A stretch of DNA of 23,200 nt from a virus, in IMG/VR virus record IMGVR_UViG_3300022413_000223, positions 1-23,200 of that record. One strand, given 5' to 3'. This document shows positions 1,240-17,353 of this stretch, in pieces. Each line of letters starts with the position of its first letter. Position 1 is the first letter of the stretch. A program made the translations under genes and the position numbers. The notes beneath the pieces are model-generated. The model ran no database searches, was not told the DNA's origin, and saw only the letters and a list, made by a program, of their open reading frames with translations.

Positions 1240-1616
1240 GCCGCGAGTACTGGCCCGAGGAATTAGACGACCCGCGCGACAGCGACGGGGACCACGCGCT
1301 CAACGAGCACCGCGAGCGGCCGATTACCGAGACCGTGCCCGACATCATCCGGCAGGCCATCTATCAACTCGAGATGGCCTGCAACGACCTGCAGGGCTCC
1401 ATCTCGGCCGTGAACTACGAGCGGCTCAGCGACGTCATGGGGCTCCTGCACCGGCTTGCGGGCTACCACTCGCTGCACGTGCGCCGGCGCTGCCTGCAGA
1501 CCGAGGACGAGGTGCGTGCAGAGCTCGACCGGCTAGCGCAGGGGGAGCCTGCATTCATCCGCTATGACCAAACCATGGGACCCGGTTGTGAGGACTGGGA
1601 CCCGACCATTGACTAG
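1236..1616 (+). CDS. Unknown acidic protein upstream of the ERF gene
   Basis: A 126-residue protein coupled to the preceding gene by ATGA. The first 40 residues are rich in Asp, Glu and Arg and look disordered. The middle (about 45-80: PDIIRQAIYQLEMACNDLQ, then SDVMGLLHRLAGYHSL) looks helical, and the C-terminus is again acidic and ends DWDPTID. No domain is recognised. It stops 10 bases before the ATG of the annealing protein, so it is part of the same operon. The G-rich run at its 3' end doubles as the ribosome binding site of the next gene. Confidence 0.6.
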   Translation: MSREYWPEELDDPRDSDGDHALNEHRERPITETVPDIIRQAIYQLEMACNDLQGSISAVNYERLSDVMGLLHRLAGYHSLHVRRRCLQTEDEVRAELDRLAQGEPAFIRYDQTMGPGCEDWDPTID

Positions 1617-1626
1617 GGGGGATACG

Positions 1627-2358
1627 ATGACAACAACGCCGGAACAGACGACGCCATTCGCGTTTAAGACGCGATTCGCGCCGCTATACCTGCTTATCGA
1701 GCAGGCCATCTCCGCGGGCTCCGACCCCGCGGTGGTCCAGCACATAGCCGCACTGATAGACGCAGAGCGGGAAGCGTCGCAGCGATGCGCACTGTACTCG
1801 GCGCTCAGCGCCTTCCAGGCTGAGTGCCCGAGCATCGAGAAGAACTCGACCGCGAACGTCATGATGAAGGGCGGCGGAACCTACAGCTACAACTACGCCG
1901 AGCTAGGAGACATCGCGGAGGCTATCCGCGAGCCGCTCGGTAAGCACGGGCTCTGCTACTTCTGGACCAGCAACCCCGACGGCGACGGCCGGCTGATATG
2001 CAAGTGCAGCGTGCGCCATGTCGAAGGGGGGTCCCTCGCCGCCACGTTCACCGCGCCAACCGACACGATATCGAAGATGTCGTCGCAGCAGGCCCAGGCC
2101 TCCGCGCTGACGTACGCCAAGCGCCAGTCGCTCGTCCAGGCCCTCGGGCTCGCGATGTGCGACGGGGACGACGACGGGGCGGCTCACGGGAGCGGTAAGA
2201 CACTCACAGAGGAGCAGGCCGCGGAACTCGATGCGCTGATTGACGCCAAAGGCGCCGACCGCCCGGCGTTCCTCAAGTACATGGGGACCGAGAACATCCG
2301 CGACATCCCCATGTCCCGGTTCCAGCACGCCAAACGCGCACTGGAGGCCAAGAAGTGA
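1627..2358 (+). CDS. erf: ERF-family single-strand DNA annealing protein
   Basis: A 243-residue protein with the ERF superfamily pattern: the YSYNYAELGDIAEAIREPLGKHGL block (about residues 86-109), a beta-rich central part, and SSQQAQASALTYAKRQSLVQALGLA (152-176) followed by an acidic run of Asp. Proteins of this family anneal complementary single strands in phage homologous recombination, often with an exonuclease partner. The C-terminal third (about 195-243) is a separate charged helical domain ending RALEAKK. The ATG at 1627 follows a G-rich Shine-Dalgarno-like run; an earlier in-frame ATG at 1564 would overlap the previous gene by about 50 bases and adds unlike sequence. The stop overlaps the GTG of the nuclease gene, so the two are made together. 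Confidence 0.88.
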   Translation: MTTTPEQTTPFAFKTRFAPLYLLIEQAISAGSDPAVVQHIAALIDAEREASQRCALYSALSAFQAECPSIEKNSTANVMMKGGGTYSYNYAELGDIAEAIREPLGKHGLCYFWTSNPDGDGRLICKCSVRHVEGGSLAATFTAPTDTISKMSSQQAQASALTYAKRQSLVQALGLAMCDGDDDGAAHGSGKTLTEEQAAELDALIDAKGADRPAFLKYMGTENIRDIPMSRFQHAKRALEAKK

Positions 2359-2960
2359 TAACCCTCGACTTCAAGCAGCGCTCGCCCGAATGGTTCAAGG
2401 CGCGGTGTGGGACGCCGACGGCTAGTCAGTTTAGCCGCATCGTCACGCCGACAGGGACGCGCTCGACACAAGCCAAAGCGTACATGGCCGAGCTCATCGC
2501 CGAGACGCAGTGCGGACCACTGGAGAGGTACTCCAGCGACTACATGGACCGCGGAACCGAGCTCGAGGGCGAGGCAATCGACTGGTACGAGTACACGACC
2601 GGCGCAAAGGTCGAAACCGTCGGTATGTGCGTGGCCGACGACCTCCGGGTCGCATGCTCGCCAGACGGACTCGTCGGCGATGACGCCGGGCTCGAGATAA
2701 AATGCCTGTCGCCGGCCAATCATGTGCTGGCACAGCTAGGCCCCGAGCCCGACAAGAAACACCGGCCCCAGATACAGGGCTGCCTGTGGATAACCGGGCG
2801 CAAGTGCTGGGACCTCCTCTACTACCACCCCGACATGGCTCCGGTTCTGCGCACGCAAGAACGAGACGAGAACTACATCGCAACCCTGGCCGGCCTGGTC
2901 TGGGAATTCCGCGAAGAACTCCACGTACAGCAGGAGCGGCTCGACAAATGGCACGCATAG
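2355..2960 (+). CDS. YqaJ-type recombination exonuclease
   Basis: A 201-residue protein of the YqaJ/lambda-exonuclease (PD-(D/E)XK) group, which degrades one strand of duplex ends to give single strands for annealing. Visible motifs: QRSPEWFKARCGTPTAS (8-24), RGTELEGEA (66-74, the conserved glutamate helix), SPDGLVG with D104, the E114-x-K116 pair in LEIKC, and the Q139-x-Q141 motif followed by LWITGR. All expected active-site positions are present, so it should be active. Translation starts at a GTG (2355) that overlaps the TGA of the annealing protein. Length is normal for the family. It overlaps the next gene by 13 bases. Confidence 0.9.
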   Translation: MITLDFKQRSPEWFKARCGTPTASQFSRIVTPTGTRSTQAKAYMAELIAETQCGPLERYSSDYMDRGTELEGEAIDWYEYTTGAKVETVGMCVADDLRVACSPDGLVGDDAGLEIKCLSPANHVLAQLGPEPDKKHRPQIQGCLWITGRKCWDLLYYHPDMAPVLRTQERDENYIATLAGLVWEFREELHVQQERLDKWHA

Positions 2961-5273: not shown

Positions 5274-5390
5274 GTGCTGCGCGTGATATGGCAGGAGCGG
5301 TGGGTCATTTTGGGAATCCTCGTCATCCTCTCCGCCATGGTGGCTTGCAACGTAGTCCTGCGTGGGCCCTATGACCCGCTCGAGCCGTAG
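5274..5390 (+). CDS. Doubtful small rightward ORF, lipoprotein- or membrane-like
   Basis: The 109-base gap between two leftward genes holds a rightward reading frame of 38 codons from GTG 5274 that would make a short basic and aromatic start (RVIWQERW), a hydrophobic segment VILGILVILSAMVA, a cysteine at residue 25 in a near-lipobox context (MVAC), and a short Pro-rich end. About 80 % of its third codon positions are G or C, similar to the real genes. Against it: strand opposite to its neighbours, no clear ribosome binding site, only GTG starts, and overlap with the 3' end of the giant gene. It could be a tiny spanin-like lipoprotein or simply chance. Confidence 0.25.
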   Translation: MLRVIWQERWVILGILVILSAMVACNVVLRGPYDPLEP

Positions 5391-8300
5391 CGCTCAAGGA
5401 ACGTTTTGGTGAACTGCTTCATCTGCGCCTCCATGCGCTGATTGAGCTCTCGCTTACGGTCGTCGTCCTCCTCGCTCCGCATAGCATCCCTCAGCGCCTT
5501 GACCCGACGCCTGGACTTGGCCGCCATCTTCTTGAGCCCAATGGCGCCGGCGTGCTCCTTGCGCAGCTCTCGGGCAGTCTCGGACGCCCCCTTCTTGCGG
5601 TGGTGCTCAAACTGCCGCGAGCGCATCTCGACCTCGTGCACGGCGTCGTAATACAGGGAAGCCGTGGTATAGCCCGGCAGCTCCCCGTAGAAGCGGCGCA
5701 GGAAGGGCACCTGGCGCAACTCGAGGTCCTGGGCCGGAGTCGTGTACATCGTCGAGATTCGCTTAGCGAGCCGCCCTAGGCCGCCTGTGGCGAAGTCCCA
5801 AAGATGGTCCACGTGCTCAGGGCTGACGTCGACGCCGCCCGAGATGACCGCGTCCCCGCCCGTCATGGCGTTCATCCACTCGGCCGCGACCTTGGCAGGC
5901 TTGGACACCGAGTAGAAGGAGCGCTGGCTCGCCGGCGTATCGCGACCGTAGTCGGGCGGCGCGATGGGGTGCCCGGCGAAGTTCATGTTCAGCATGATGT
6001 CGACAGCCGGGTCCGTGACGGTGGGCGAGACAATCTGAGCGAGGTGCTGCGCGCCGCCGATGGGGTTGAACGACTCCATGAATGCGACCGCGAGCGACTG
6101 GCTGGCTTTGCCCACGGTCTTGGACCCGCTGGCCAACTCGGACACGTGGCGCCCGATGGCATTGATGACGTTGTAGCCGTACGGCAGCGGGATGCTGATG
6201 TAGTCATCCGCCTTCGCCGTCATCGGGTTCATCAGGATGAGGTTCCGCTGCTTGGTGTGCTCGGGCAGCTTGTCATAGATGTTGAGCCCGTCGTCATCGT
6301 CATCGGTGACCATCCGGTTCACCTGGTCGATGATGGCCGACATGACGGCGATTCCGACGACCATGCGCTGCACGCGCGGATGCTTGATGTTCCGGTACAG
6401 CGTTGCCGTGCCCTGGATGCCCGCGTTGGCGAACATGTAGAGGGCATTGATGGTCGGGCCGAGCTCGCCGTGGCGGTTGAAGTTGACCGTGAGGTTCTTG
6501 GCCGCGGACATGGCCCTGAGCTCGGGGACGCCGCGCTTGATTAGCTGCTTGAACAGCGAGGCGCGCACGCCGTTCTCGACCATCATGTTGTAATCCTCGA
6601 TGGCCTTCATGATGTGGCCATAGGCGCGATGGACCCGCCCCTCACCAACGGCCTTCTCGATAGCCTTCTTCTTCTCCGCGAACCCTCCCGTGGCGTAGAA
6701 CCAGCCGACCTTTGCGCCCGCCCCGAGGTACTGATTGATGTACTGGTCGTTCTCGTTCTTGGCCTCGCCCCCCCGGAAGTTACGGCGCAGGGCGGCCATG
6801 ATGCCGGGCATGTCCTTGAGCACCGCGCGCGTCAGCCCCTTCTGGTCAAGGGACCGCATGTTCACGCCCGCCGTCTGCAGGTCGCGCGTGAAGTTCGACA
6901 GCATGAACTCGGGGTCGAGGCTCGTGTTGATTGACGATAGGAACCTGTTTAGGTGGTGCAGGCCAGAGACCACCTTTCCGTGCCTAACGGTCCCCAGGTT
7001 CTTCATCGCCCGCCCGAGTTCGGGGTGCAGGCGGATAATCATCTCCTTGCCGTCGACCTTGTAGCCGAACGACTCCTTAGGCATCTCCCAATCGGCCTGG
7101 TCCGGGCGCTCGTATTCCTTGACGATGGAGTCCTTGGAGAACTTGTGCAGAACCTTCGATAGCGACACACCCACGGCGTTCTGCTCGGAACGATTGATGG
7201 CAATCTCTGCCTGTGCGGCCGAGAACACTAGCGGGTTGTCTGGCCGGCTCGTGCGGCCCAGGCGGCGGCGCACCTCGGGTCCTTTGACCGAGACCCCTGT
7301 GGGCCGTGACGGGAAGCTCGGCCCGGCTCCGTCCTCCTCGGCCGTGCGCGTGGGCACGTAGTGCTTGAAGCGCTTTGTCCAGTGGTTGTAGTTCTCCCTG
7401 GAGATGAGGCCCGACGCCACCTGGATGCGCAGCGTCCGCTTGTTCATGCGATCCGTCAGCGTGCCGATACGCTGGTAAAGCTCGTCGCCAGCGTGCTCTT
7501 TCAGGATGGCCTGGGCGTCGGCGTCCTTCATGCCCGAGCCCCAACCCTCGGGGACGGACGGCGCGAAGTCCTTTTTGCCCTTCTCGTCTGCCGCGTTGTA
7601 CTGCTCGAGTAGGTCGGCGTTGGCCTCCTGGGCGTGGCGGGCCAGAACGAACGTTCCGGCGGACTCGATGACGTCCTCGGCCGACTTGCCGTCACGCTTC
7701 ATGACGGACTGGAGCGTGCTGTGTAACGGGTCGAGCGCGTGTTTTTTGAGCCGGCGGTATCGCTCCTCCTGCTTGCCCGGCATGGCCTCGGCCTTGAGGT
7801 AGGCCTCGTAGGCCTGTAGCTCGCGCTGGCTGAGGTCCTCGAACAGGCCCATGCCGCGGAGCTTGTCGATGAAGCGGCGCAGCGGGTCGAGCTTGTCGAC
7901 GAACAGGCGGGTTGCCGCCTGGGCACGGGTCATCTCGACGTCGAATGGGGTGAGCAGGTCAGCGCGGCGGAACGCGCCCCCGCCCTTGCGTGATGCGGCG
8001 AACCTCCCCGTAATCTTCGCGTCTTTCGGGTCGAAAATGACGTAGTTGTAGGAGCCCTCGCCCTTGCCGCGGCTGGTGCCGTCCAGATACTTGATACCCC
8101 GAATGCCCGCGGCGAGCAGGGCCTGGGATGCGGCGCGCTGACCGCCCATTTCCTCGGCGGTATCGTCGTAGTGAGTGCTGCCCTTGATGGAATCGTCAGG
8201 GCCTAGTTCGACAAGCTCGCGGTTGAGGCGCAGCGACTCCTCGCGCGCTTTCTGTATGCCGGCATCGTACCGCTCCGGCTCAGGGTCCATCGATTGTGAC

Positions 8301-11005
8301 GATTCCAGACCGCTTCTGCGTCGGTTTGCGCGCTCGATGCGGCGCCGCAGCTCTTCGCCGCGCTTCCTGGCCTGGTCGGTAATGCCTAGCGCAGCCCGAA
8401 CCTTCTCGCTCTGCGCCGAGAGCGGCTCGTCCCACAGGAGGTACTCGTCCTCGGCGGGGGCGAGGTCGACTTGGTAGCCGACGCCGCGCTGTATATCCGC
8501 TGTGCCCGCCTCCAGCGCATCGGCCGCCGCGTCAAAATAGCGCCCCTCCCTGTCGTAGTCGCGCGCATCCTTGGCCCGCGTGCGCATGTAGGCCACGGCA
8601 TCGGCATTAGTCTTGGAATTGCCAGAGCCAATTCGGAGAGCTGACAGGAAAACTCGTTTCTCGGCATCGCTGTATCCGTCCGGGTACTCCCGCACCTGGG
8701 CATCTGCCCCAACAGCCTTCTTGTAGTAGTCCGCAACCTCCTTCCGCCCCGCGAAGTAGTGCCCGTGCCCAAACGCCTGGGCCCCCTCCCCTGTCCCGAT
8801 GAACTCGTCCGAGAACTTGTCAAAGTCCTTCGCGCTGCCGTGGTACGCCGCCGCCTCGCGGATGTCGGCAACGTCCAGCGTGTGCGTGTGCCCGTTCTTC
8901 TCCCCAGGCTGCACCACCCCGTCAACGACCGCATGGTCGTGCCCGTCGTCGAAGCTCGTGCGGGCGGCGCCGGGGGTGTATGTGTGGCTGTGGCCGTCCG
9001 CTACGCCTGTCTTGATGGGCGTGGTGCTCCCGTCCTGTCCCCTACTTTCCACCTTTTTCCCTACCAGACTGTCCAGGGCGCCCTTGATGGCCTTGGCCGC
9101 CTGGGCCGCGGGAATCGTCGCCTCCTGCCCTAGGAGCCCCGAGAGGGTCTCCAGGTTGGACTGGTAGCCCTTGATGCCCAGCTTGCTCGCCACCCGGCGG
9201 ATGGCCTCCACAAGGCGCTGTAACAGCGTAGGCTTAGCTAGGAGCCGCTCAATCGACGCACGGCCGTCTGGGGTCGAGAGGGCCTCCAGGTACGCCGTGA
9301 GCTCCTGGGCCCGCATAGCGACGCCCTCCTCGCCCTGTGCGGCCTCTGTGAGCGCGTCAAACCGCTCCGGGCCGAACGACTGGCGATAGCTCTCGCGTGC
9401 AGCAGCGAGCCCCTCAGGGTCGATTGAGGCAATCTCCGCGCTGAGGGCCTCTATGCCACCGTCGGTGCGGCGCCCAAAGTCGTGCGTGAGCTCGTGGTAG
9501 ACAATCGGCGTCGGGTCCTCGGACTTGGCGTCGACAAACACCTCGCCCGGCTCGAGCGAGGCGCCGATGAAGTCGGCCTCCTCCCCCTGTACGAACCGGA
9601 CCTTGGTCCCCAGCCGCTCGGCCGTCTCGGCCATCTTGGTCTGGCGGGGCGTCGTGGCCTCGACCTCCTCCATGGGGCCGAAGCGCTCTGTGAGGGCCTC
9701 GGGCACCCCCTCACGGACCCCCTCACGGACCCCCTCACGGACCCCCTCAAAAGATGAGGCCCCCTCATTCTGGTTTTTGAGGGGGGTGCCCGGCCCGGCC
9801 GGGGCTGCACCCCCGGACTCGGCCCCAGGAGCCGACTCCGGGCCGGGCTCAACGACGGCAGCCACGTCCGCCGCCTGCTCCTCCGGTTTAGGACCCGCCG
9901 CCGGTGCCTCTCTAGCAGCCCCCGTTGCCGTCTGACCTTCTACAGTTTCAGTCGGTTCAGGTAAGCCGGCGGCGGGTTTGTCGGGCAGCATCGCAGATGC
10001 CGCGCTCATGCCAGAGCCCAGGATGGCGATTCCGAGAGCCTCGCCCAGGATGGTCTCCGGCGGCGGTATGACGTCGCCCCAAGACTCCGCGAGCTCGGGG
10101 TCCGCCGCCTGGAGAACTCGAGTCCAGTACTCCTCGGCAATCTCAGGGAGAACCCCATCCCACTTAGCGCCCTTGGCAATCTTGGCCACGAGCTTGGACC
10201 CCGCGCCCTTGCCCAGGAGGGGTTTCAGCAGGGTCCGCTGGAACTTCTTGAGCAGCACACCCCCGGGAATACCCTGCTCGCCCACGGCCTCCCAGAACAT
10301 GCGCCGCGTCTCCTCGGGCAGGCTGGCGCCAAAGTCCTCCAGCGTCCCCTCGAACGCGAGCTTGTCGTCCTCCGAGACCTTGACCCCCTGCCAGAAGGAC
10401 TCCTCTGCGCCGCGCATCGCCGCTCGAGTTACCGAGCCCTTGCCGCCCGTGACCTTGGGCACGTTCTCAGACGCCACGACCTGCAGCGCGCCACGCCCGA
10501 GAATCTTGGCGGCCGACATGGCGAGCTTGCTCCCCTTGTTCGCCTGGGATACCGCGCTCAGAAACTGCATCACCTTGCCCGCGGTGCGCGTGCCCGACGC
10601 CAGGGTCCCGAGCCCTCCAGTCGCGAGCGACACGGCGGCCATCTCGCCGCCCCACTGAATCGAGCTCGGGATGACCTCGGCGGCCTTGCTCAGTACGCCT
10701 CCCGGACGTTGGCGCCAGCGGTACTCGTCCAGGATTAGCGCGGCGTCCTCGTCGCTGTACGTGTCGTTGGCCACGCGCTCTTGAGCCGCGCGCATCTTCT
10801 CCTCGGGCGTCTCGCCAAAGAGCCCGCGGAAGGGCGTGAAGTCCCCGCGCGTGAGCGTCTCGAAGAACCCACGCGGCACGCTGGGGTCGTGCGTCTTGAC
10901 CCCGAGACTCTCGAAGTCGAAGGGCTCCGCTTGGGGCTCTTGGCGCGGCTCCTCACGCGGCTCCCCCGCGCTAACGCCCAGGTCGGAGAAGAACGCGTCA
11001 GTCAT
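5369..11005 (-). CDS. Giant polyvalent internal virion protein
   Basis: 1878 residues. N-terminal helical region (1-340) with a hydrophobic segment at about 320-340; Ala/Pro/Glu-rich linker (345-445) with tandem EGVR units; a zinc-peptidase-like domain with HELTH at 504-508; a His-rich stretch with three GHxH motifs (671-709); an ADP-ribosyltransferase-like domain (about 721-1002: YHGSAKDFDKF, IGTGEGAQAFGHGHYFA, and IKYLDGTSRGKG followed by NYVIFD) with a coiled-coil insert at 876-935; a long helical region; and an LPD38-like C-terminal part (about 1345-1700, with LDPEFMLSNFTRDL and a membrane-like segment near 1545-1562). These are domains of phage polyvalent proteins, which are thought to be ejected with the DNA. 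It sits where T7-like phages have their largest internal virion protein. The start at 11005 overlaps the preceding stop (ATGA); an ATG at 11185 would overlap that gene by 180 bases. Confidence 0.85.
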   Translation of the reverse strand: MTDAFFSDLGVSAGEPREEPRQEPQAEPFDFESLGVKTHDPSVPRGFFETLTRGDFTPFRGLFGETPEEKMRAAQERVANDTYSDEDAALILDEYRWRQRPGGVLSKAAEVIPSSIQWGGEMAAVSLATGGLGTLASGTRTAGKVMQFLSAVSQANKGSKLAMSAAKILGRGALQVVASENVPKVTGGKGSVTRAAMRGAEESFWQGVKVSEDDKLAFEGTLEDFGASLPEETRRMFWEAVGEQGIPGGVLLKKFQRTLLKPLLGKGAGSKLVAKIAKGAKWDGVLPEIAEEYWTRVLQAADPELAESWGDVIPPPETILGEALGIAILGSGMSAASAMLPDKPAAGLPEPTETVEGQTATGAAREAPAAGPKPEEQAADVAAVVEPGPESAPGAESGGAAPAGPGTPLKNQNEGASSFEGVREGVREGVREGVPEALTERFGPMEEVEATTPRQTKMAETAERLGTKVRFVQGEEADFIGASLEPGEVFVDAKSEDPTPIVYHELTHDFGRRTDGGIEALSAEIASIDPEGLAAARESYRQSFGPERFDALTEAAQGEEGVAMRAQELTAYLEALSTPDGRASIERLLAKPTLLQRLVEAIRRVASKLGIKGYQSNLETLSGLLGQEATIPAAQAAKAIKGALDSLVGKKVESRGQDGSTTPIKTGVADGHSHTYTPGAARTSFDDGHDHAVVDGVVQPGEKNGHTHTLDVADIREAAAYHGSAKDFDKFSDEFIGTGEGAQAFGHGHYFAGRKEVADYYKKAVGADAQVREYPDGYSDAEKRVFLSALRIGSGNSKTNADAVAYMRTRAKDARDYDREGRYFDAAADALEAGTADIQRGVGYQVDLAPAEDEYLLWDEPLSAQSEKVRAALGITDQARKRGEELRRRIERANRRRSGLESSQSMDPEPERYDAGIQKAREESLRLNRELVELGPDDSIKGSTHYDDTAEEMGGQRAASQALLAAGIRGIKYLDGTSRGKGEGSYNYVIFDPKDAKITGRFAASRKGGGAFRRADLLTPFDVEMTRAQAATRLFVDKLDPLRRFIDKLRGMGLFEDLSQRELQAYEAYLKAEAMPGKQEERYRRLKKHALDPLHSTLQSVMKRDGKSAEDVIESAGTFVLARHAQEANADLLEQYNAADEKGKKDFAPSVPEGWGSGMKDADAQAILKEHAGDELYQRIGTLTDRMNKRTLRIQVASGLISRENYNHWTKRFKHYVPTRTAEEDGAGPSFPSRPTGVSVKGPEVRRRLGRTSRPDNPLVFSAAQAEIAINRSEQNAVGVSLSKVLHKFSKDSIVKEYERPDQADWEMPKESFGYKVDGKEMIIRLHPELGRAMKNLGTVRHGKVVSGLHHLNRFLSSINTSLDPEFMLSNFTRDLQTAGVNMRSLDQKGLTRAVLKDMPGIMAALRRNFRGGEAKNENDQYINQYLGAGAKVGWFYATGGFAEKKKAIEKAVGEGRVHRAYGHIMKAIEDYNMMVENGVRASLFKQLIKRGVPELRAMSAAKNLTVNFNRHGELGPTINALYMFANAGIQGTATLYRNIKHPRVQRMVVGIAVMSAIIDQVNRMVTDDDDDGLNIYDKLPEHTKQRNLILMNPMTAKADDYISIPLPYGYNVINAIGRHVSELASGSKTVGKASQSLAVAFMESFNPIGGAQHLAQIVSPTVTDPAVDIMLNMNFAGHPIAPPDYGRDTPASQRSFYSVSKPAKVAAEWMNAMTGGDAVISGGVDVSPEHVDHLWDFATGGLGRLAKRISTMYTTPAQDLELRQVPFLRRFYGELPGYTTASLYYDAVHEVEMRSRQFEHHRKKGASETARELRKEHAGAIGLKKMAAKSRRRVKALRDAMRSEEDDDRKRELNQRMEAQMKQFTKTFLERYGSSGS
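8000..8845 (-). other. ADP-ribosyltransferase-like domain in the giant protein
   Basis: Residues 721-1002. H722 in YHGS and Y750 in GHYFA are candidates for the H and Y of an H-Y-E-type active site. The last conserved strand reads YNYVIFD (986-992), so the usual Glu is not obvious. A coiled-coil-like insert (876-935) separates the two halves. Activity is uncertain. Confidence 0.6.
8876..8995 (-). other. Triple GHxH histidine motif in the giant protein
   Basis: Residues 671-710 contain GHSHTY, then SFDDGHDHAVVDG, then NGHTHTL: three GHxH units spaced about 17 residues apart. This is a likely metal-binding module between the peptidase-like and ADP-ribosyltransferase-like domains. Confidence 0.6.
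9476..9499 (-). other. HExxH metallopeptidase motif in the giant protein
   Basis: This stretch encodes YHELTHDF (residues 503-510), the zinc-binding HExxH signature, preceded by a strand (TPIVY) and followed by a helical region as in metallopeptidase-like domains of phage polyvalent proteins. The third zinc ligand is not evident; E568 in the helix RAQELTAYLEAL (565-576) is a candidate. Confidence 0.65.
9706..9749. repeat. 12-bp tandem repeat, three full copies and a partial fourth
   Basis: The unit CCCCCTCACGGA (plus strand) starts at 9706, 9718 and 9730, with a truncated copy at 9742. In the giant gene it encodes tandem EGVR. On the coding strand it gives four runs of five G separated by seven bases. 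Confidence 0.9.
9742..9785. repeat. Nested inverted repeat beside the tandem repeat
   Basis: CCCCCTCAAAA (9742-9752) pairs perfectly with TTTTGAGGGGG (9775-9785). Inside it ATGAGG (9754-9759) pairs with CCTCAT (9763-9768) around three C. It is inside the coding region of the linker of the giant protein. Confidence 0.75.
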
Positions 11006-12399
11006 TGCGGCGGAATCAGTCGGCCCGCGGAGACGGACGGCGGACGGCCGACCATGTACTGGTGTTCCTGAGTCCAAGCCTCGCGCGCCTGAGATGTGAT
11101 GGCCTCTGCAATCTTTGCTGCGGGATCGTCCTCGAGAATGCTGGATAGCTTCTTCTTGAGAGCGCGCCCCTTGCGCTCGAGCCATTGGATGCCGGCGCCG
11201 ACCGGGTCGACGCCCGGGTCCTTAGGCGCGCCCTTGGCGGCCTTCCGCTGCTTGTCCATGGTGGCCGTAACCCTAAGGTCGATGTCCTTCATGAAGTCCA
11301 TCACGGACTTGGCCGCCTTCTTCAGGGAGTCATCGAGCGCTAGGTCGTTCTCCGCCGCGAACTGCGTTAGCTCCTCCGGCGTCGCGCCCTGGGCAATCAT
11401 GGTTGTGAATGCAGACACGAGCTGCGGCCCCTCGGGGTGCTCACGCACGCTCGTGGTCCCGCCAGTGAGCGGCGGGTCCTGCTCGACCGGCGGGGCCTGT
11501 CCCATCGGAGGAGCGCCGCCGCCCATGAGGCCCGACTGCTCCGCGGCGCCCTGAACCATCTCCGGCCACGAGGCATCACCGCCCGAGGCCAGCCACTGCT
11601 GGGACGCCGCAATCTGCGCCGCTCGAATCTGAGGTGTATCCATACCCAAGCCGCGCATCGACTGCTCCAGCTCGGGGGCGAATGGCTTGAGCGCGCCCAG
11701 CGCCATGGACGGCGAGATATTCCCGTCGAGCAGAGCCCCATGCACCTGGCTAAGCATCTCGCCCGCCGGCTCGAACGGGTCGACCGCCTGCATCAGCTGC
11801 GTTACCGTCTCCATGGCAGCACCGAGCTGCTGCTGCTCCATGGCGTTAGTGTGCTCCTCGCGCAGGTCCATGAACGCGCGGTGCCGCTCCTCGGGGTCGA
11901 GGTTCGGGTCGGCAATCATCTGCATGAACGCCTCGCCGTTAGGCACAGCCTGCGCCATGACGGCGGCGCGGTTGGCCATGCCGCGCATCTGCTCCTGCTC
12001 CTGCGCCTTTGCCTGGGCCTGCAACTCCAGCTGCATCGCCAGCTTGAAGTCGGGCTCAGACAATGAAGCGAGCATGCGCCGGCGCTCGGGCGGCATCTCC
12101 TGCATCGCGCCGAGCATCTGGTCCCGCGCCTCTTGCTCTTGCGCAAAGCGGTCCTGGTCGAACTGCTCCATCTCGGCAAGACGACGCTCGCGGTCCTCGG
12201 CTATCTGCAGGTTGCGGTCATACTGCCGCAGACGCTCCTCCTGGGCCGCCTGCTCCTGCGCTATCGACTCCTCCTCGAGCCGGTTGCGGCGCAGCTGTTC
12301 ACGAGTACCAAAGAACCCCGTCGCAGCGGCGCCCACGGCGGCGAGATGCGGGTTGTCCGCACTGTTCGGACCACTGACGCTGTAACGGAGAACGCCCAT
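11002..12399 (-). CDS. Helical internal-virion-like protein
   Basis: A 465-residue protein. After a short start it has a long charged, Gln- and Glu-rich coiled-coil region (about 33-190, with EEERLRQYDRNLQIAEDRE-like heptads), then helical segments to about 300, a Pro/Gly-rich linker (PPMGQAPPVEQDPPL, about 297-311), and a C-terminal helical, Lys-rich part ending GRLIPPQ. No enzyme motif. It lies between a small glycine-rich virion protein and the giant polyvalent protein, the place where T7-like phages encode a second internal core protein that is ejected with the DNA. Its start overlaps the previous stop by one base and its stop overlaps the giant gene (ATGA). The role is inferred from order and composition. 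Confidence 0.65.
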   Translation of the reverse strand: MGVLRYSVSGPNSADNPHLAAVGAAATGFFGTREQLRRNRLEEESIAQEQAAQEERLRQYDRNLQIAEDRERRLAEMEQFDQDRFAQEQEARDQMLGAMQEMPPERRRMLASLSEPDFKLAMQLELQAQAKAQEQEQMRGMANRAAVMAQAVPNGEAFMQMIADPNLDPEERHRAFMDLREEHTNAMEQQQLGAAMETVTQLMQAVDPFEPAGEMLSQVHGALLDGNISPSMALGALKPFAPELEQSMRGLGMDTPQIRAAQIAASQQWLASGGDASWPEMVQGAAEQSGLMGGGAPPMGQAPPVEQDPPLTGGTTSVREHPEGPQLVSAFTTMIAQGATPEELTQFAAENDLALDDSLKKAAKSVMDFMKDIDLRVTATMDKQRKAAKGAPKDPGVDPVGAGIQWLERKGRALKKKLSSILEDDPAAKIAEAITSQAREAWTQEHQYMVGRPPSVSAGRLIPPQ

Positions 12400-13067
12400 T
12401 AGAGGTAGCCTCGCTCGCGGAGACGCCCGGCCTCGCTCTGGCGTCCGCCGAAGTTGTCGATCTGGTCCCCGATGAAGGCGCCAGCCGACCCGATGTCCCG
12501 GTAGACCTGCGGGTCCACCGTCTGCTGCTGACCGAGCCAGATCTTCATGCGGTCAAGGTTGAAGTTCCGCCGTACCCCCATGAAGTTGCGGTAGCTCCCC
12601 GCGAGTCCACCTAAGGCCCCCGCCTGCGCTCGAGCCTGGCCCGTGTGCAAACCCGCGCGCAACCCAGCAAGGCCCTCGTCGACCTCACCAAACGCGCGGT
12701 TGGCGTCCGAGCTAATGCCGCGCGCAAAGTTAGCCTTGAGCGTGCTCGATGCCCCCGGCATGAACGACTGCAGCGAGCCCATGTCGCGCCGGCGGCCCTC
12801 ATCGACACGCCGGTACGCCGCCCGCCCAATGTTGCTTACCGCCGCCTGAGCGTTGCCGTACCCCTGGCCGAGCAGGTCGAACATCTCCCCAAAGACGTCG
12901 CGCTCCTTACGGAACAGGCGCTTCTGGTGAGCAAAGCCCTTCTTGAGTGCCTCGTTCTCCTCGAACTGGCGCCGCTGCATCGAGCGCCGCGCCTTGTGCC
13001 CGGCGTGCCCCCCCGCCAGTCCACCGGCCAGGGCGATGCCGCCGCCAATCAGTCCTCCGTATCCCAT
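12399..13067 (-). CDS. Small internal-virion-like protein with glycine-zipper start
   Basis: A 222-residue protein. It begins with a Gly/Ala-rich hydrophobic stretch (GYGGLIGGGIALAGGLAGG, residues 2-20) that resembles a glycine-zipper membrane segment. Next come a basic, Gln/Arg-rich helix (25-60) and further helices, with a Gly/Ala/Arg-rich middle and QQQTVDPQVYRDIGSAGAFI near the end. Such small proteins downstream of the tail nozzle gene in podoviruses are usually ejection proteins that help form a channel. AGGAG lies six bases before the ATG. The gene starts only a few bases after the stop of the nozzle gene and its stop overlaps the next start. Confidence 0.6.
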   Translation of the reverse strand: MGYGGLIGGGIALAGGLAGGHAGHKARRSMQRRQFEENEALKKGFAHQKRLFRKERDVFGEMFDLLGQGYGNAQAAVSNIGRAAYRRVDEGRRRDMGSLQSFMPGASSTLKANFARGISSDANRAFGEVDEGLAGLRAGLHTGQARAQAGALGGLAGSYRNFMGVRRNFNLDRMKIWLGQQQTVDPQVYRDIGSAGAFIGDQIDNFGGRQSEAGRLRERGYL

Positions 13068-13069
13068 GG

Positions 13070-16000
13070 CTAACTCCTAATCCTCCGGCGACCCGCGGGG
13101 ACCGCCTCGATCTCGAGTGACTCAAACGCCCAACGCCCGCGAGGCGTGGCGTCCATGATCTGATAGTAGACGTAGGAGCCGCGCACGCGGTCGAACACGT
13201 AGGCGTTCAGCCCCCTATCCTGGACTCGACTCCACTGCACGTCTCCCATGTCGTCAGCCGACGCTGCCACCAAAGCCTGGAGCTTCGCCCCGTCTTGGTC
13301 GCGGTCGAGCTCGAGCTGGCAGCGGTTGACTCGAGTCTCAGCACCCTCCGTAGAGAAGGGACCGATGAGCACACGACTCGCGATGCGGAACCCGTCATCG
13401 TCCGGGGCGTCGTCGTCAAAGTAGCGGATCCGTCCGTCCTCGCAGCCGACCAACAGGACCCGGTCGTCCTTGCCGTCAGCGTCCATCGAGTGCAGCGCAG
13501 TCGGCTGTACCGCCACGCTCGCCGAGTCGTCCTCCCACCAGCCGCCAGAGCCGACGGCCTCGTTTGCCTTCTTCTCCCAGAACCAGCGCCGGGTCTTGGT
13601 CCCATACGCCGTGTAGGGCACCTGGGCGACCATCAGGCCGTTGCGGCGGAAATCCCAGGCCATCTCGATGCGGTAGGCCCCGAAGTCCAGGTCGGCCAGC
13701 CTGCGCTCGATCCAGTGCTCGGATATCTCCACCGTGGTCGCGGTATCGGTGACGTAGATACCGCCCTTGGAGCCCATGAAGAATATCTGGCCGTCCGGCG
13801 AGCGCGCCCAGGGTGTGCCAAATGCCATCCCGATCTGGTCCGACACTAGCTGGGGCGGCGTCGCCCGGTCGCTCGAGGAGTGCACACCAAAGTCTCGAGC
13901 CGGGTCGCCCAGGATGGCGTGGATGCTCTTGTCCCCGCCGATGAGCAGCGTCTCATTGCTGGCCGGGATGACCGCCTGGATGATGTCCGCTAGACGCCCT
14001 GGGAAGGCCTGTAGGTCCAGGCTCCATGCCATCGAGGGATTGAGCACGGGCGGGAAGAAGTCCCAGCCCAGGGGATTACCGGCCTCGCTAGCGTAGATGT
14101 TGCGCGGGTCCTCGCGCGGCACCGTGATGATGCGGCCGTTCCACTTCTCAAGATGGATGAGCCTCTTAGGCACCTCCCCGCCGGCCTCGGCCTCCCAGTC
14201 GGTCAGCGTGTCCTCGAGCGGGTCATACACCTTGGAGCTGTACCCGTCGGTCATGTACAGCTTGCCGTACGCCTCGACGCTCGTGACATACGGGCTTAGC
14301 GGGTCGAACGCGCTCGCGCCGCCAGTCGGTGTAGTCACAGCCCCGCCGCGCGAGTCGAACGTCTTGACGTTGCCCTCGGACACCGCCACGCCTCGAGTCT
14401 GCCGCGGAGGACCAGCGGCGCCAGGAGTCGCGGCGAGCAGGCGCAGCTTGTGCACCGTCGGCTCTGTTGTCAGCCCCGCGTCATCGGTCGTTACAAAGAT
14501 GTGCTCGGGAGATGCCTCACCCGTTGGGGTAGAGCCGAACGTCGCGCTGTATGCCATCACGTCCTGAGAGAACGTGTAGCCAAACTTCTTAGTCGTCGAC
14601 CCGTCCCCGTTCCCCTGGCCGTCGTACTTCTCGAGATGCGCCGCCTGAGGGTTGTCGTTCGATATGGGGATGTAGACGTCGCCATCTGAGTCAACGCTAA
14701 TATTCGGCTGATTATAGCTAGGCTCATCCGTTGCGTCCGCGTTCACGACCCATGCGCCAAAGTCTCCTCCTGTTACGGTCTGCGTAACCCGCGTCAAAGC
14801 CCCGTCGGTCGTGATGCCGCCGTTGGGGGCGTCATCTAGACGTGTCGCCTCTACGTGCGTCGCTGCAACAGCCTCGTTCGAGGCGCGGAACAGGAACACT
14901 GAGGGGTCGGACAGCGCCTCGACGATGTTGATTTCCGCCGTCAAGTTCAGCGCCGCCGCCGTGGCAGAGCCCGCGATGAGAACCTCACGGTAAGTCGCTG
15001 TAATCGGAGTCCCCGAGAGGGTCGTCTGGAATACGAACCTCACCTCAGGGTTCACGCCGTCGTTCAGCGTAAAACTCTCGCCCGGCGCAGGGGCCGCGCC
15101 AGCACCCCCTAGGCCTAAATCCCACTCGGCCCCTACAGGGACCTTGTACGTCGTGCCCGCGTCGATGACCTTGCGGAAGATGGGCTCGAGGTCCGTGTCT
15201 GTCGTGGACACCCTCTGCCCGACTGTGAGCAGGTCCCCGGATGTATCGATGGCCACCGCGAACCCAACTCCGGGGCCGGCGAACGCCCATGAGAGCGCAC
15301 CTGCCTCGGGTTGGAACTTAGCTAGGACGGGGTCGGGGCTGTTGAGGATCAGCGTGTCCGGGTCGACGCCGGGCGGAGTGGTGCCCGAGTAGAGCCCACC
15401 GTCTATGGGTGTACCCGGCGGGTTGTTTGTCGACGACCACGGATGTGCAGTGAGCAGGATGTGAGAGATGCCCCACTTGTGCGCGAGATATCCCTCGATG
15501 CGCTCGATCTCGTCCTCGGTGAGCGGCGTGTCGTGCGGCGTGACGCTCGTATCGCCAAGGACGGTTACCCACTCGGCGAACTGGCCAAAAAAGCTCCGGT
15601 ATCCGTCGTGTTGCGTTCCGGGCCTAGTGTCGTACACGTCGGCATCGGGGTTCGCAGACTGCTCCGACCGGGGGCCGCCGATAGTCGTTCGAGTGTTCTC
15701 GCCGCTCCAGCTCTCATCCTCTGGGATGATGAACGCGTTGTCGACCCTCTCGCCGTTGACCCGGAACTCGCCAGTGTTCCCTGCGCCGTTGAAGATGAAC
15801 GACACAACAGCAGAGTGCACATCGTTCACCGAGCCGTTCGCATCCTCAGCAAATCCGCCACCCGGCCCGCCCGCTACGCTGTGCAGGATGGTCCCGTTAG
15901 GGCCATTGCCGCCCGTCGCGCCAGGCGCCTCGATGACAATCCCGCCGGGGCTGTTCGGCGCAAACTCAAGCTCCGAGTTCGGGTTCTGCGCGTTCATCAG

Positions 16001-17353
16001 AATCCCAAACGACTGACGAGGAGACTTCTGGAACGCGAAGACGTTGATGTCCTCCTGGTTCAAGTCGGGACGCACGACGAAGAACACGCCCCATGTACCG
16101 CCGGCAAAGCCCGGTATCGCCCCGCGCTGGGCGGGCATCGCGTCGGTCGCGGTCTCTTTGTTGTCCTCTGCTGAGTTCGGCTTGCTCGAGAGGATCTCTC
16201 CACCGAACGCATTGCCGCCGATGGTGCGGTCGCCGTCGAAGATGATGGACGGCTTGTTCCCAATCCCCTGCGCCTTGTATGACGGCACACCGCGCCGGTC
16301 GTCCCCTATGCCCGTCCGGGTCTTGAGCGGCCGGTTCGTAGCGTCGGTGACCTCGGGGAAGATGTCATAGAACGGGTCGACTCGCGTGTCCTCCATGACA
16401 CGCACCCGGTCCAGGTCTGCGAAGCCCGTCAGGCGCTCGGCGTCGACGTGGTAGTGAACCCGCTGGTCGCCATTGACGACATCGCGCGGGGTCCAGCCGA
16501 TTGATGTCTCCGTGAAGTTGTCCGAGCTCGGAGTCGAGCCGCGAAGGTTGTTCTTCTCCGATGTGACGATAATCGACCCATCGTTCTGTACAGCTAGGTC
16601 GTTGACGGGGTACGGCGCGCCTCTGTCCCACACCCGATAGGGGCGGGGTGTCGTGACGTCGTACATCGCCAGCTTGGAGAACGTGTCGCCCTCGTCGTAG
16701 TCCTCGACCACGTACAGGAGCCCGTGCCGCACGGCGATGCTCTTAGCCGCGCCCTCGAGCCTCAGGGGCCAAAAGTCCTGGTCGCTGAGCTCGTACTGGC
16801 TGTCCTCGTTGCGGCTGAACCGCCAGACCTTGCCCAGCGAGCCCTCGCTAGATGTCGCAGCTACGTACAGCTGGTCGAGCTCGTCAATGAGCAGCTTGCG
16901 AATCAGCTCGTCGGTGTCCTCCACAGGGATCGGTATCGTGTCGATGATCTCCATGGCCGAGTTCATCTTCAAGACGACGCTGCCGCCGTCCAGGACGAAC
17001 ACGTTGCCACCCTGGTCTACCGCGCTGGCGAACGCCGCGCCCGATGCGGTCCTATGACTGCCCTCGCTCGTGATGACCTGCGGCGTTACCAGCGTGTTCG
17101 CAACCGAGGTCAGCTCGGTATAGGAGACGCGGGGCGCCTCGAATGAGACACTCGAGAGTTCCTGTACCGGGGCCCCCGCTGAGCTCACCGGGTCCAGTAG
17201 GAACCTGCGCATACCCGCACGCTGCGCCCCGCGTAGACGTCCCGTCTTAGGGTCCTCTGCCCGCACGTTACGTGCGTCTCGAGTCGACCCAGGCACCTGC
17301 TCGCTAAACGCCAGCTCCTCTGAGATGCCCTTGATGGGGAACGGGATCTTCAT
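13070..17353 (-). CDS. Very large tail-nozzle-like protein with inserted LamG-like domain
   Basis: 1427 residues, much longer than the T7 tail nozzle protein (about 800). The N-terminus (PFPIKGISEELAFSEQVPGST) and the C-terminal half (about 980-1420: RLIHLEKWNGRIITVP, NIYASEAGNPLGW, TLLIGGDKSIHAILGD, GGIYVTDTATT, NGLMVAQVPY) match the beta-propeller pattern of nozzle and DNA-stabilisation proteins. Residues 100-340 also look propeller-like. About 345-640 form an inserted LamG-like sandwich (FDGDRTIGG, WGVFFVVRPD, NGERVDNAF), ending in EIERIEGYLAHKWGI...HPW, a signature common after such domains. Another beta-rich insertion follows (750-870). It probably forms the tail exit tube, with the LamG-like part facing out for receptor or sugar binding. 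Start overlaps the adaptor stop (ATGA). Confidence 0.75.
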   Translation of the reverse strand: MKIPFPIKGISEELAFSEQVPGSTRDARNVRAEDPKTGRLRGAQRAGMRRFLLDPVSSAGAPVQELSSVSFEAPRVSYTELTSVANTLVTPQVITSEGSHRTASGAAFASAVDQGGNVFVLDGGSVVLKMNSAMEIIDTIPIPVEDTDELIRKLLIDELDQLYVAATSSEGSLGKVWRFSRNEDSQYELSDQDFWPLRLEGAAKSIAVRHGLLYVVEDYDEGDTFSKLAMYDVTTPRPYRVWDRGAPYPVNDLAVQNDGSIIVTSEKNNLRGSTPSSDNFTETSIGWTPRDVVNGDQRVHYHVDAERLTGFADLDRVRVMEDTRVDPFYDIFPEVTDATNRPLKTRTGIGDDRRGVPSYKAQGIGNKPSIIFDGDRTIGGNAFGGEILSSKPNSAEDNKETATDAMPAQRGAIPGFAGGTWGVFFVVRPDLNQEDINVFAFQKSPRQSFGILMNAQNPNSELEFAPNSPGGIVIEAPGATGGNGPNGTILHSVAGGPGGGFAEDANGSVNDVHSAVVSFIFNGAGNTGEFRVNGERVDNAFIIPEDESWSGENTRTTIGGPRSEQSANPDADVYDTRPGTQHDGYRSFFGQFAEWVTVLGDTSVTPHDTPLTEDEIERIEGYLAHKWGISHILLTAHPWSSTNNPPGTPIDGGLYSGTTPPGVDPDTLILNSPDPVLAKFQPEAGALSWAFAGPGVGFAVAIDTSGDLLTVGQRVSTTDTDLEPIFRKVIDAGTTYKVPVGAEWDLGLGGAGAAPAPGESFTLNDGVNPEVRFVFQTTLSGTPITATYREVLIAGSATAAALNLTAEINIVEALSDPSVFLFRASNEAVAATHVEATRLDDAPNGGITTDGALTRVTQTVTGGDFGAWVVNADATDEPSYNQPNISVDSDGDVYIPISNDNPQAAHLEKYDGQGNGDGSTTKKFGYTFSQDVMAYSATFGSTPTGEASPEHIFVTTDDAGLTTEPTVHKLRLLAATPGAAGPPRQTRGVAVSEGNVKTFDSRGGAVTTPTGGASAFDPLSPYVTSVEAYGKLYMTDGYSSKVYDPLEDTLTDWEAEAGGEVPKRLIHLEKWNGRIITVPREDPRNIYASEAGNPLGWDFFPPVLNPSMAWSLDLQAFPGRLADIIQAVIPASNETLLIGGDKSIHAILGDPARDFGVHSSSDRATPPQLVSDQIGMAFGTPWARSPDGQIFFMGSKGGIYVTDTATTVEISEHWIERRLADLDFGAYRIEMAWDFRRNGLMVAQVPYTAYGTKTRRWFWEKKANEAVGSGGWWEDDSASVAVQPTALHSMDADGKDDRVLLVGCEDGRIRYFDDDAPDDDGFRIASRVLIGPFSTEGAETRVNRCQLELDRDQDGAKLQALVAASADDMGDVQWSRVQDRGLNAYVFDRVRGSYVYYQIMDATPRGRWAFESLEIEAVPAGRRRIRS
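15434..16321 (-). other. LamG-like domain inserted in the tail nozzle protein
   Basis: Residues 345-640. It is a concanavalin-like beta sandwich by pattern, closing with LTEDEIERIEGYLAHKWGIS (611-630), the helix typically found after LamG-like domains. Both sides are beta-propeller-like sequence, which suggests an insertion within the tail protein. Confidence 0.6.

What the first reader, a model, noticed from the sequence alone, without database searches (positions are those of the whole stretch)
5369..11005. Giant polyvalent virion protein with several predicted effector domains
One protein joins an HExxH peptidase-like domain, a triple GHxH motif, an ADP-ribosyltransferase-like domain and an LPD38-like part, in the place of the T7-type large internal virion protein. 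Polyvalent proteins (described by Iyer and co-workers) are thought to enter the host with the DNA and disarm host defence or modify host proteins. This combination and order, with two possible enzymes and a metal-binding module, may be a new architecture.
Basis: partly seen in the sequence, partly recalled or inferred. Interest (0 to 1): 0.65.

Follow-up and report, generated by a model that had tools for sequence, protein, structure and literature searches.

The report
Polyvalent phage ejection protein (MPTase–ART–LPD38)
A short-tailed phage carries one very large protein that is probably packed inside its particle and injected with the DNA, and that joins a likely zinc peptidase, a likely ADP-ribosyltransferase and a known phage injection-type core; this is a new member of a described class of proteins, ordinary except for an odd histidine-rich insert.

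Summary
On the minus strand (11005→5369) lies one 1878-aa gene in the virion operon of a short-tailed phage. HExxH (504), three GHxH motifs at an exact 17-residue period (671/688/705), an ART-type H722/Y750 site and LPD38 (1577–1769, Pfam E 6e-44) are all present.

The domains are real. The ART domain has at least 577 relatives in IMG/VR; its AlphaFold2 model (pLDDT about 80–97) matches best a cyanophage A4 pre-ejectosome chain, then tankyrases. The HExxH region folds as a zincin (best matches lethal factor, ArdC, PPEP), with likely third ligand E560.

It is a new member of the polyvalent-protein class of Iyer et al. 2017, in the gp14–gp15–gp16 position; an LPD38 homologue (phage JC1 gp69) has been found in purified virions. 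"New architecture" is mostly not supported: HExxH, ART and LPD38 occur in this order in at least five other proteins; two have the same peptidase family and one is collinear. Only the GHxH insert is unusual (0 of 98 complete LPD38 giants). Similar triplets sit in a portal, a head protease and a fibre-like protein; metal binding is untested.

Packaging, injection and both enzyme activities remain inferred.

The parts
5369..11005 (-). giant polyvalent protein, 1878 aa; ATG at 11005, 4-bp overlap (ATGA) with the upstream gene
9701..11005 (-). N-terminal helical region, residues 1-435; weak LPD14 match at 267-338 (E 0.007); collinear with residues 89 onward of L126
9056..9700 (-). zincin-like metallopeptidase-type domain, residues 436-650; model alpha-beta-beta-beta-alpha(HExxH)-...-alpha(E560)
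9482..9496 (-). HELTH, residues 504-508 (zinc ligands H504 and H508, general base E505, by analogy)
9326..9328 (-). E560 in EEGxA, likely third zinc ligand, conserved in L126, L318 and L315
8870..9007 (-). triple GHxH module, residues 667-712 (motifs at 671, 688, 705; period 17)
7985..8857 (-). ART-PolyVal-type ADP-ribosyltransferase domain, residues 717-1007; H722, Y750, E740, D975, R979, N987 conserved
5384..7981 (-). conserved C-terminal core, residues 1009-1874, about 30% identical to C-termini of giant proteins of Stx-type, Vibrio and Bcep22-like phages
5699..6277 (-). LPD38 (PF18857), residues 1577-1769
11002..12399 (-). 465-aa protein in the gp15-like position (no sequence match; assigned by position)
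12399..13067 (-). 222-aa protein in the gp14-like position; weak match to the 230-aa gene upstream of the L126 giant (E 0.001)
13070..17353 (-). tail-tube-B-like protein, 1427 aa; homologue precedes the giant gene in L206 (E 3e-73) and L318 (E 2e-51)

Best explanation
It is a polyvalent internal virion (ejection) protein of a short-tailed phage. The C-terminal 870 residues with LPD38 are the conserved part that places the protein in the head core together with the two smaller core proteins encoded just upstream, and lets it leave with the DNA (inferred from homology and gene order). The N-terminal half is cargo. Once in the envelope or cytoplasm, the zincin-like domain most likely cuts the polypeptide, at its linkers, so that domains are freed (inferred), and the ART domain uses NAD+ to modify a host macromolecule early in infection (inferred; target unknown). 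The GHxH triplet is most likely a small virion-associated module in the linker between the two enzymes, perhaps binding metal (weakest step). Shown here: the gene, the domains' homology, the folds as models, and the recurrent domain order. Not shown: packaging, injection, activity of either enzyme.
For: LPD38 E 6e-44; the C-terminus is homologous to giant proteins of Stx-type, Vibrio and Bcep22-like phages. In Bcep22-like phage JC1 the LPD38 giant gp69 (4515 aa) was found in CsCl-purified virions with 51 unique peptides (PMC9144972); the C-terminus of the corresponding BcepIL02 gp70 is homologous to ours (E 3e-30). Gene order small core protein, about 500-aa protein, giant is shared with JC1 (196, 510, 4515 aa), BcepIL02, vir555, pelagiphage Lederberg, where the first is annotated internal virion protein, and L206. 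ART: 577 or more relatives; H722 in 74/74, D975 72/74, R979 73/74, N987 70/74; best structural match a cyanophage A4 pre-ejectosome chain, Z 10.2, then tankyrases Z 7.5-7.9; BFVD matches to ART-PolyVal-like proteins; A-4L ORF27 itself shows YHGT...GSGTYFS. Peptidase: HExxH and EEGxA conserved in L126, L318, L315; model with pLDDT 80-90 whose best matches are lethal factor, a HExxH oxygenase domain, ArdC and PPEP-3. Iyer et al. 2017 found the same domain types combined in phage polyvalent proteins.
Against: No virion proteomics for this phage; the window is a 23.2-kb uncultured IMG/VR fragment. Structural Z for the peptidase is only 5-6, within the range of chance for single hits, and one top match (8s5f) is a HExxH oxygenase, not a peptidase. 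The third ART catalytic residue is not settled: the position matching the PARP glutamate is Asn (N987, matched by eye from the strand motif), while Iyer et al. describe Asp. No cleavage site is identified.
Confidence: 0.72

Rival explanations
1. The giant protein is a purely structural core/ejection protein; the ART-like and zincin-like domains are retained as structural or DNA/portal-binding parts without catalysis.
For: The best structural match of the ART domain is a chain of a cyanophage A4 pre-ejectosome, where the domain sits in an assembled core; the PARP glutamate position is Asn in 70 of 74 family members.
Against: H722, Y750, E740, D975 and R979 are almost invariant over 74 divergent ART domains, many in unrelated architectures or short proteins (Y750 and E740 are partly favoured by the search patterns). 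HExxH and EEGxA are kept at about 30% identity.
Confidence: 0.17
2. The peptidase domain acts on host proteins (defence or envelope) rather than cleaving its own polypeptide; the whole protein acts as one unit. (This competes only with the self-cleavage step of the main explanation.)
For: Iyer et al. 2017 allow this: N4 virion RNAP and ArdC, with zincin domains, are packaged or transferred unprocessed. Closest folds include lethal factor and PPEP, which cut other proteins.
Against: Phage P1 DdrB, with a C-terminal MPTase, is cut before packaging; here the domain is flanked by low-complexity linkers suited to processing.
Confidence: 0.35
3. Anti-restriction or defence-blocking protein of the DarB type, acting on incoming DNA.
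For: LPD38 giants of Bcep22-like phages are annotated DarB-like antirestriction; sister L126 carries a ddrB-ParB domain.
Against: The window protein has no methylase, helicase or ParB domain match in Pfam, NCBIfam or PADLOC.
Confidence: 0.12

Closest known systems
Phage polyvalent proteins, Iyer et al. 2017 (PMC5512222): MPTase, ART and LPD38 domains
   Same: Multidomain, next to late virion genes, zincin HExxH, HY-type ART, LPD38 at the C-terminus
   Different: Triple GHxH insert not described there (term absent from the text); N-terminal region without firm family
L126 = L231/L206, IMG/VR contig 3300008952_001992, 4055 aa
   Same: N-terminal region, HExxH domain, ART and LPD38 C-terminus collinear; same upstream genes
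   Different: About 1600 aa more between peptidase and ART (ddrB-ParB and three further ART-PolyVal copies) and about 600 aa more before the C-terminus; no GHxH module
Bcep22-like giant proteins (JC1 gp69, BcepIL02 gp70)
   Same: LPD38 C-terminus, position after two small virion proteins, found in JC1 virions
   Different: Lytic transglycosylase-like, methylase/helicase-like and LPD3 domains in place of MPTase and ART
Cyanophage A4 pre-ejectosome protein (PDB 9k3a chain B; A-4L ORF27 by length)
   Same: ART-fold domain in an internal ejection protein
   Different: No detectable sequence homology by profile; no LPD38; ART near the C-terminal end
Phage T4 Alt
   Same: Packaged, injected ART is the functional model
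   Different: R-S-E clade, single-enzyme protein; taken from the text of Iyer et al., not compared here

Membership tests
Phage polyvalent protein (Iyer et al. 2017) | Two or more domains of different biochemical type in one large protein | tested here: met
   ART, zincin-like domain, LPD38
Phage polyvalent protein (Iyer et al. 2017) | Gene next to late virion genes | tested here: met
   portal match, tail-tube-like and core genes in one minus-strand run
Phage polyvalent protein (Iyer et al. 2017) | Packaged and delivered with DNA | not testable with these tools
   only by homology: JC1 gp69 in virions (PMC9144972)
LPD38 (PF18857) | Match above the curated cut-off (27 bits) | tested here: met
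   150.8 bits, E 6e-44
ART-PolyVal (PF18760) | Match above the curated cut-off (31.2 bits) | tested here: not met
   22.4 to 24.7 bits; the sister L126 passes at 230 bits, but over four copies together
ART superfamily, HYD type | ART fold | tested here: met
   model pLDDT about 80-97; 9k3a Z 10.2 and tankyrases Z 7.5-7.9 are the top six rows; BFVD ART-PolyVal proteins E about 1e-12
ART superfamily, HYD type | H in strand 1, Y in strand 2, D in strand 5 | tested here: inconclusive
   H722 and Y750 in 74/74; third residue could be D975 (72/74), D992 (54/74) or N987 (70/74)
Zincin-like MPTase of polyvalent proteins | Three-stranded sheet, N-terminal helix, helix with HExxH, helix with third-ligand Glu | tested here: met
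   secondary structure of model m89f96a77fa12 fits, HExxH and E560 both in helices; conserved in L126, L318, L315; zinc geometry not measured, coordinates not at hand
Zincin-like MPTase of polyvalent proteins | Significant match to a known zincin by sequence or structure | tested here: inconclusive
   no significant sequence match; M48 peptidase 3c37 E 0.22 over the HExxH region; VIA-align Z 5.8 lethal factor, 5.6 ArdC
T7 gp16-type internal core protein | Third gene of the core cassette after gp14- and gp15-like genes | tested here: met
   order 222-, 465-, 1878-aa genes; same pattern in pelagiphage Lederberg, whose protein matches our C-terminal profile (E 5e-31 among five sequences), and others
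T7 gp16-type internal core protein | Sequence or fold homology to T7 gp16 | not tested

The most novel reading that the evidence does not exclude
The triple GHxH stretch is an undescribed small metal-binding module that moves among virion proteins (portal C-terminus, head maturation protease, fibre-like proteins, and here a polyvalent ejection protein) and works inside the particle, for example by holding metal for, or restraining, the neighbouring peptidase until injection.
Probability: 0.2. Interest if true: 0.5.

Novelty: new member of a known kind. Interest (0 to 1): 0.32.

Why it matters
It adds a compact example of a phage injection protein with two candidate enzymes, and ties ART domains of polyvalent proteins to a solved pre-ejectosome chain, which supports the idea that such domains travel in the particle core. 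The recurrent HExxH, ART, LPD38 order suggests a cassette of cargo domains in front of a fixed ejection core, which can be tested in cultured relatives. The GHxH module is the only part that would be new.

Tried and rejected
Single-sequence scan of viral contigs with the whole protein found nothing. Pfam, PHROGs, NCBIfam and PADLOC gave no match for the peptidase region. The first alignment for folding (A4) misplaced the peptidase and GHxH rows onto the ART region; that model's peptidase part therefore had no alignment, and the region was folded again with a correct one (A6). Foldseek alone gave no significant PDB hit for either model; only the VIA-align second look did. The profile of our ART family does not detect A-4L ORF27 by sequence, so that link rests on fold and motif. 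Many GHxH pattern hits in IMG/VR are simple repeats or non-coding frames and were discarded, as were GHTH runs in tail-fibre repeats. The GHxH query alone found nothing in the phage collection. The idea that the combination is new was rejected. The A4 structure paper (Hou et al. 2025) is not held in the library. An ORF start at 11185 was rejected in favour of 11005.

Full report
Observation. The reported interval holds one long minus-strand gene. HExxH is at 504-508, GHxH at 671, 688 and 705 with an exact spacing of 17, and the ART-like H and Y at 722 and 750. The triple GHxH is far above chance (0.015% of shuffles), a lone HExxH is not (5.7%), so the peptidase claim needed other evidence. The window is a 23.2-kb linear IMG/VR record.

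C-terminus. LPD38 is certain (E 6e-44). Residues 1009-1874 are about 30% identical to the C-termini of giant proteins of Stx-type coliphages, Vibrio podoviruses and Bcep22-like phages, with at least 534 IMG/VR relatives and 85 in bacterial genomes. In a set of 98 distinct complete proteins of this kind, median length 2637 aa, the region lies at the very C-terminus in 94.

ART domain. Residues 717-1007 match the vir555 giant protein at 42% and 62% over two pieces and at least 577 IMG/VR loci. H722 is kept in 74 of 74, D975 in 72, R979 in 73 and N987 in 70; Y750 and E740 are also invariant but lie in the search patterns. The model has pLDDT of about 80-97 over most of the domain. Among solved structures the best match is chain B of the cyanophage A4 pre-ejectosome (9k3a, Z 10.2), followed by tankyrases (Z 7.5-7.9). 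By residue numbering that chain can only be A-4L ORF27, 1717 aa, which shows YHGT...GSGTYFS near its C-terminal end. BFVD gives ART-PolyVal-like proteins. Iyer et al. assign polyvalent ARTs an H-Y-D site (PMC5512222); which residue is the third here is not settled.

Peptidase domain. No family matched by sequence. But a collinear sister, L126, keeps HELxHD and the following EEGxA, and profile iteration finds the same pattern in L318 and L315. With these rows the region folds at pLDDT 80-90 as helix, three to four strands, helix with HExxH, and a later helix with E560. The structural neighbours are mostly HExxH proteins: lethal factor, a HExxH oxygenase domain, ArdC, PPEP-3, M48, selecase (Z 3.6-5.8). 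Each Z alone is weak; the concentration of zincins and the two conserved motifs make the zincin assignment likely. It agrees with Iyer et al., who linked polyvalent MPTases to lethal factor.

GHxH module. A pattern scan of viral contigs and inspection of frames found comparable triplets in a portal C-terminus (L009), a head maturation protease-like protein (L020), proteins of phrog_24785 (L050, L107), a 368-aa ORF (L015) and a fibre-like protein (L064). L009, L037 and L064 also match ours by sequence (E 7e-7 to 3e-4 in this small set). No giant protein among the 98 has it. It is modelled with low confidence, so metal binding is only suggested by the histidines.

Context. The order tail-tube-like protein, 222 aa, 465 aa, giant recurs: L206 has a tail-tube homologue (E 3e-73), a 230-aa gene (E 0.001), a 515-aa gene and the 4055-aa giant; vir555, Lederberg and BcepIL02 show the same pattern by size and annotation. 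In phage JC1 the LPD38 giant gp69 was found in purified virions with 51 unique peptides (PMC9144972). The protein thus very likely occupies the place of the large ejection protein.

Mechanism. Shown: gene, domain homology, model folds, recurrent order, and virion presence of a homologue. Inferred: packaging here, injection, self-cleavage by the zincin-like domain, NAD+-dependent modification of a host target. The main rivals are a purely structural role of the two enzyme-like domains and a peptidase aimed at host proteins.

Novelty. HExxH, ART and LPD38 in this order occur in L126, L271, L233, L318 and L269, L126 and L318 with the same peptidase family. The architecture is therefore a member of a known kind, with the GHxH insert as its only unusual part.

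Noticed in passing
window 9705-9749: Perfect 12-bp tandem repeat, 3.8 copies, coding EGVR repeats in the linker just before the peptidase domain; length could vary in frame.
   Followed up: partly
window 13070-17353 (-): 1427-aa tail-tube-B-like protein, much longer than usual, with a possible lectin-like insert around residues 350-650 by eye; no Pfam match.
   Followed up: no
window 1564-2960 (+): ERF recombinase followed by YqaJ exonuclease, a typical phage recombination pair on the other strand.
   Followed up: partly
L009:5120-5365, L020:2448-4259, L050:658-1785, L064:3618-3815, L107:9245-10393: Triple GHxH stretches in unrelated virion proteins (portal, head protease, fibre-like, phrog_24785); no Pfam model covers them.
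   Followed up: partly
L126:1128-13292: 4055-aa sister protein with four ART-PolyVal copies, a ddrB-ParB domain and LPD38.
   Followed up: partly
L369:20116-25269 (-): Anabaena phage A-4L ORF27, annotated tail protein, carries an ART-like motif and is by length the pre-ejectosome chain 9k3a_B.
   Followed up: partly
L003:6549-12473: Virus vir555, assigned to Methanomicrobiales, has a giant protein with ART first and HExxH after it, the reverse order, and no LPD38 match.
   Followed up: partly
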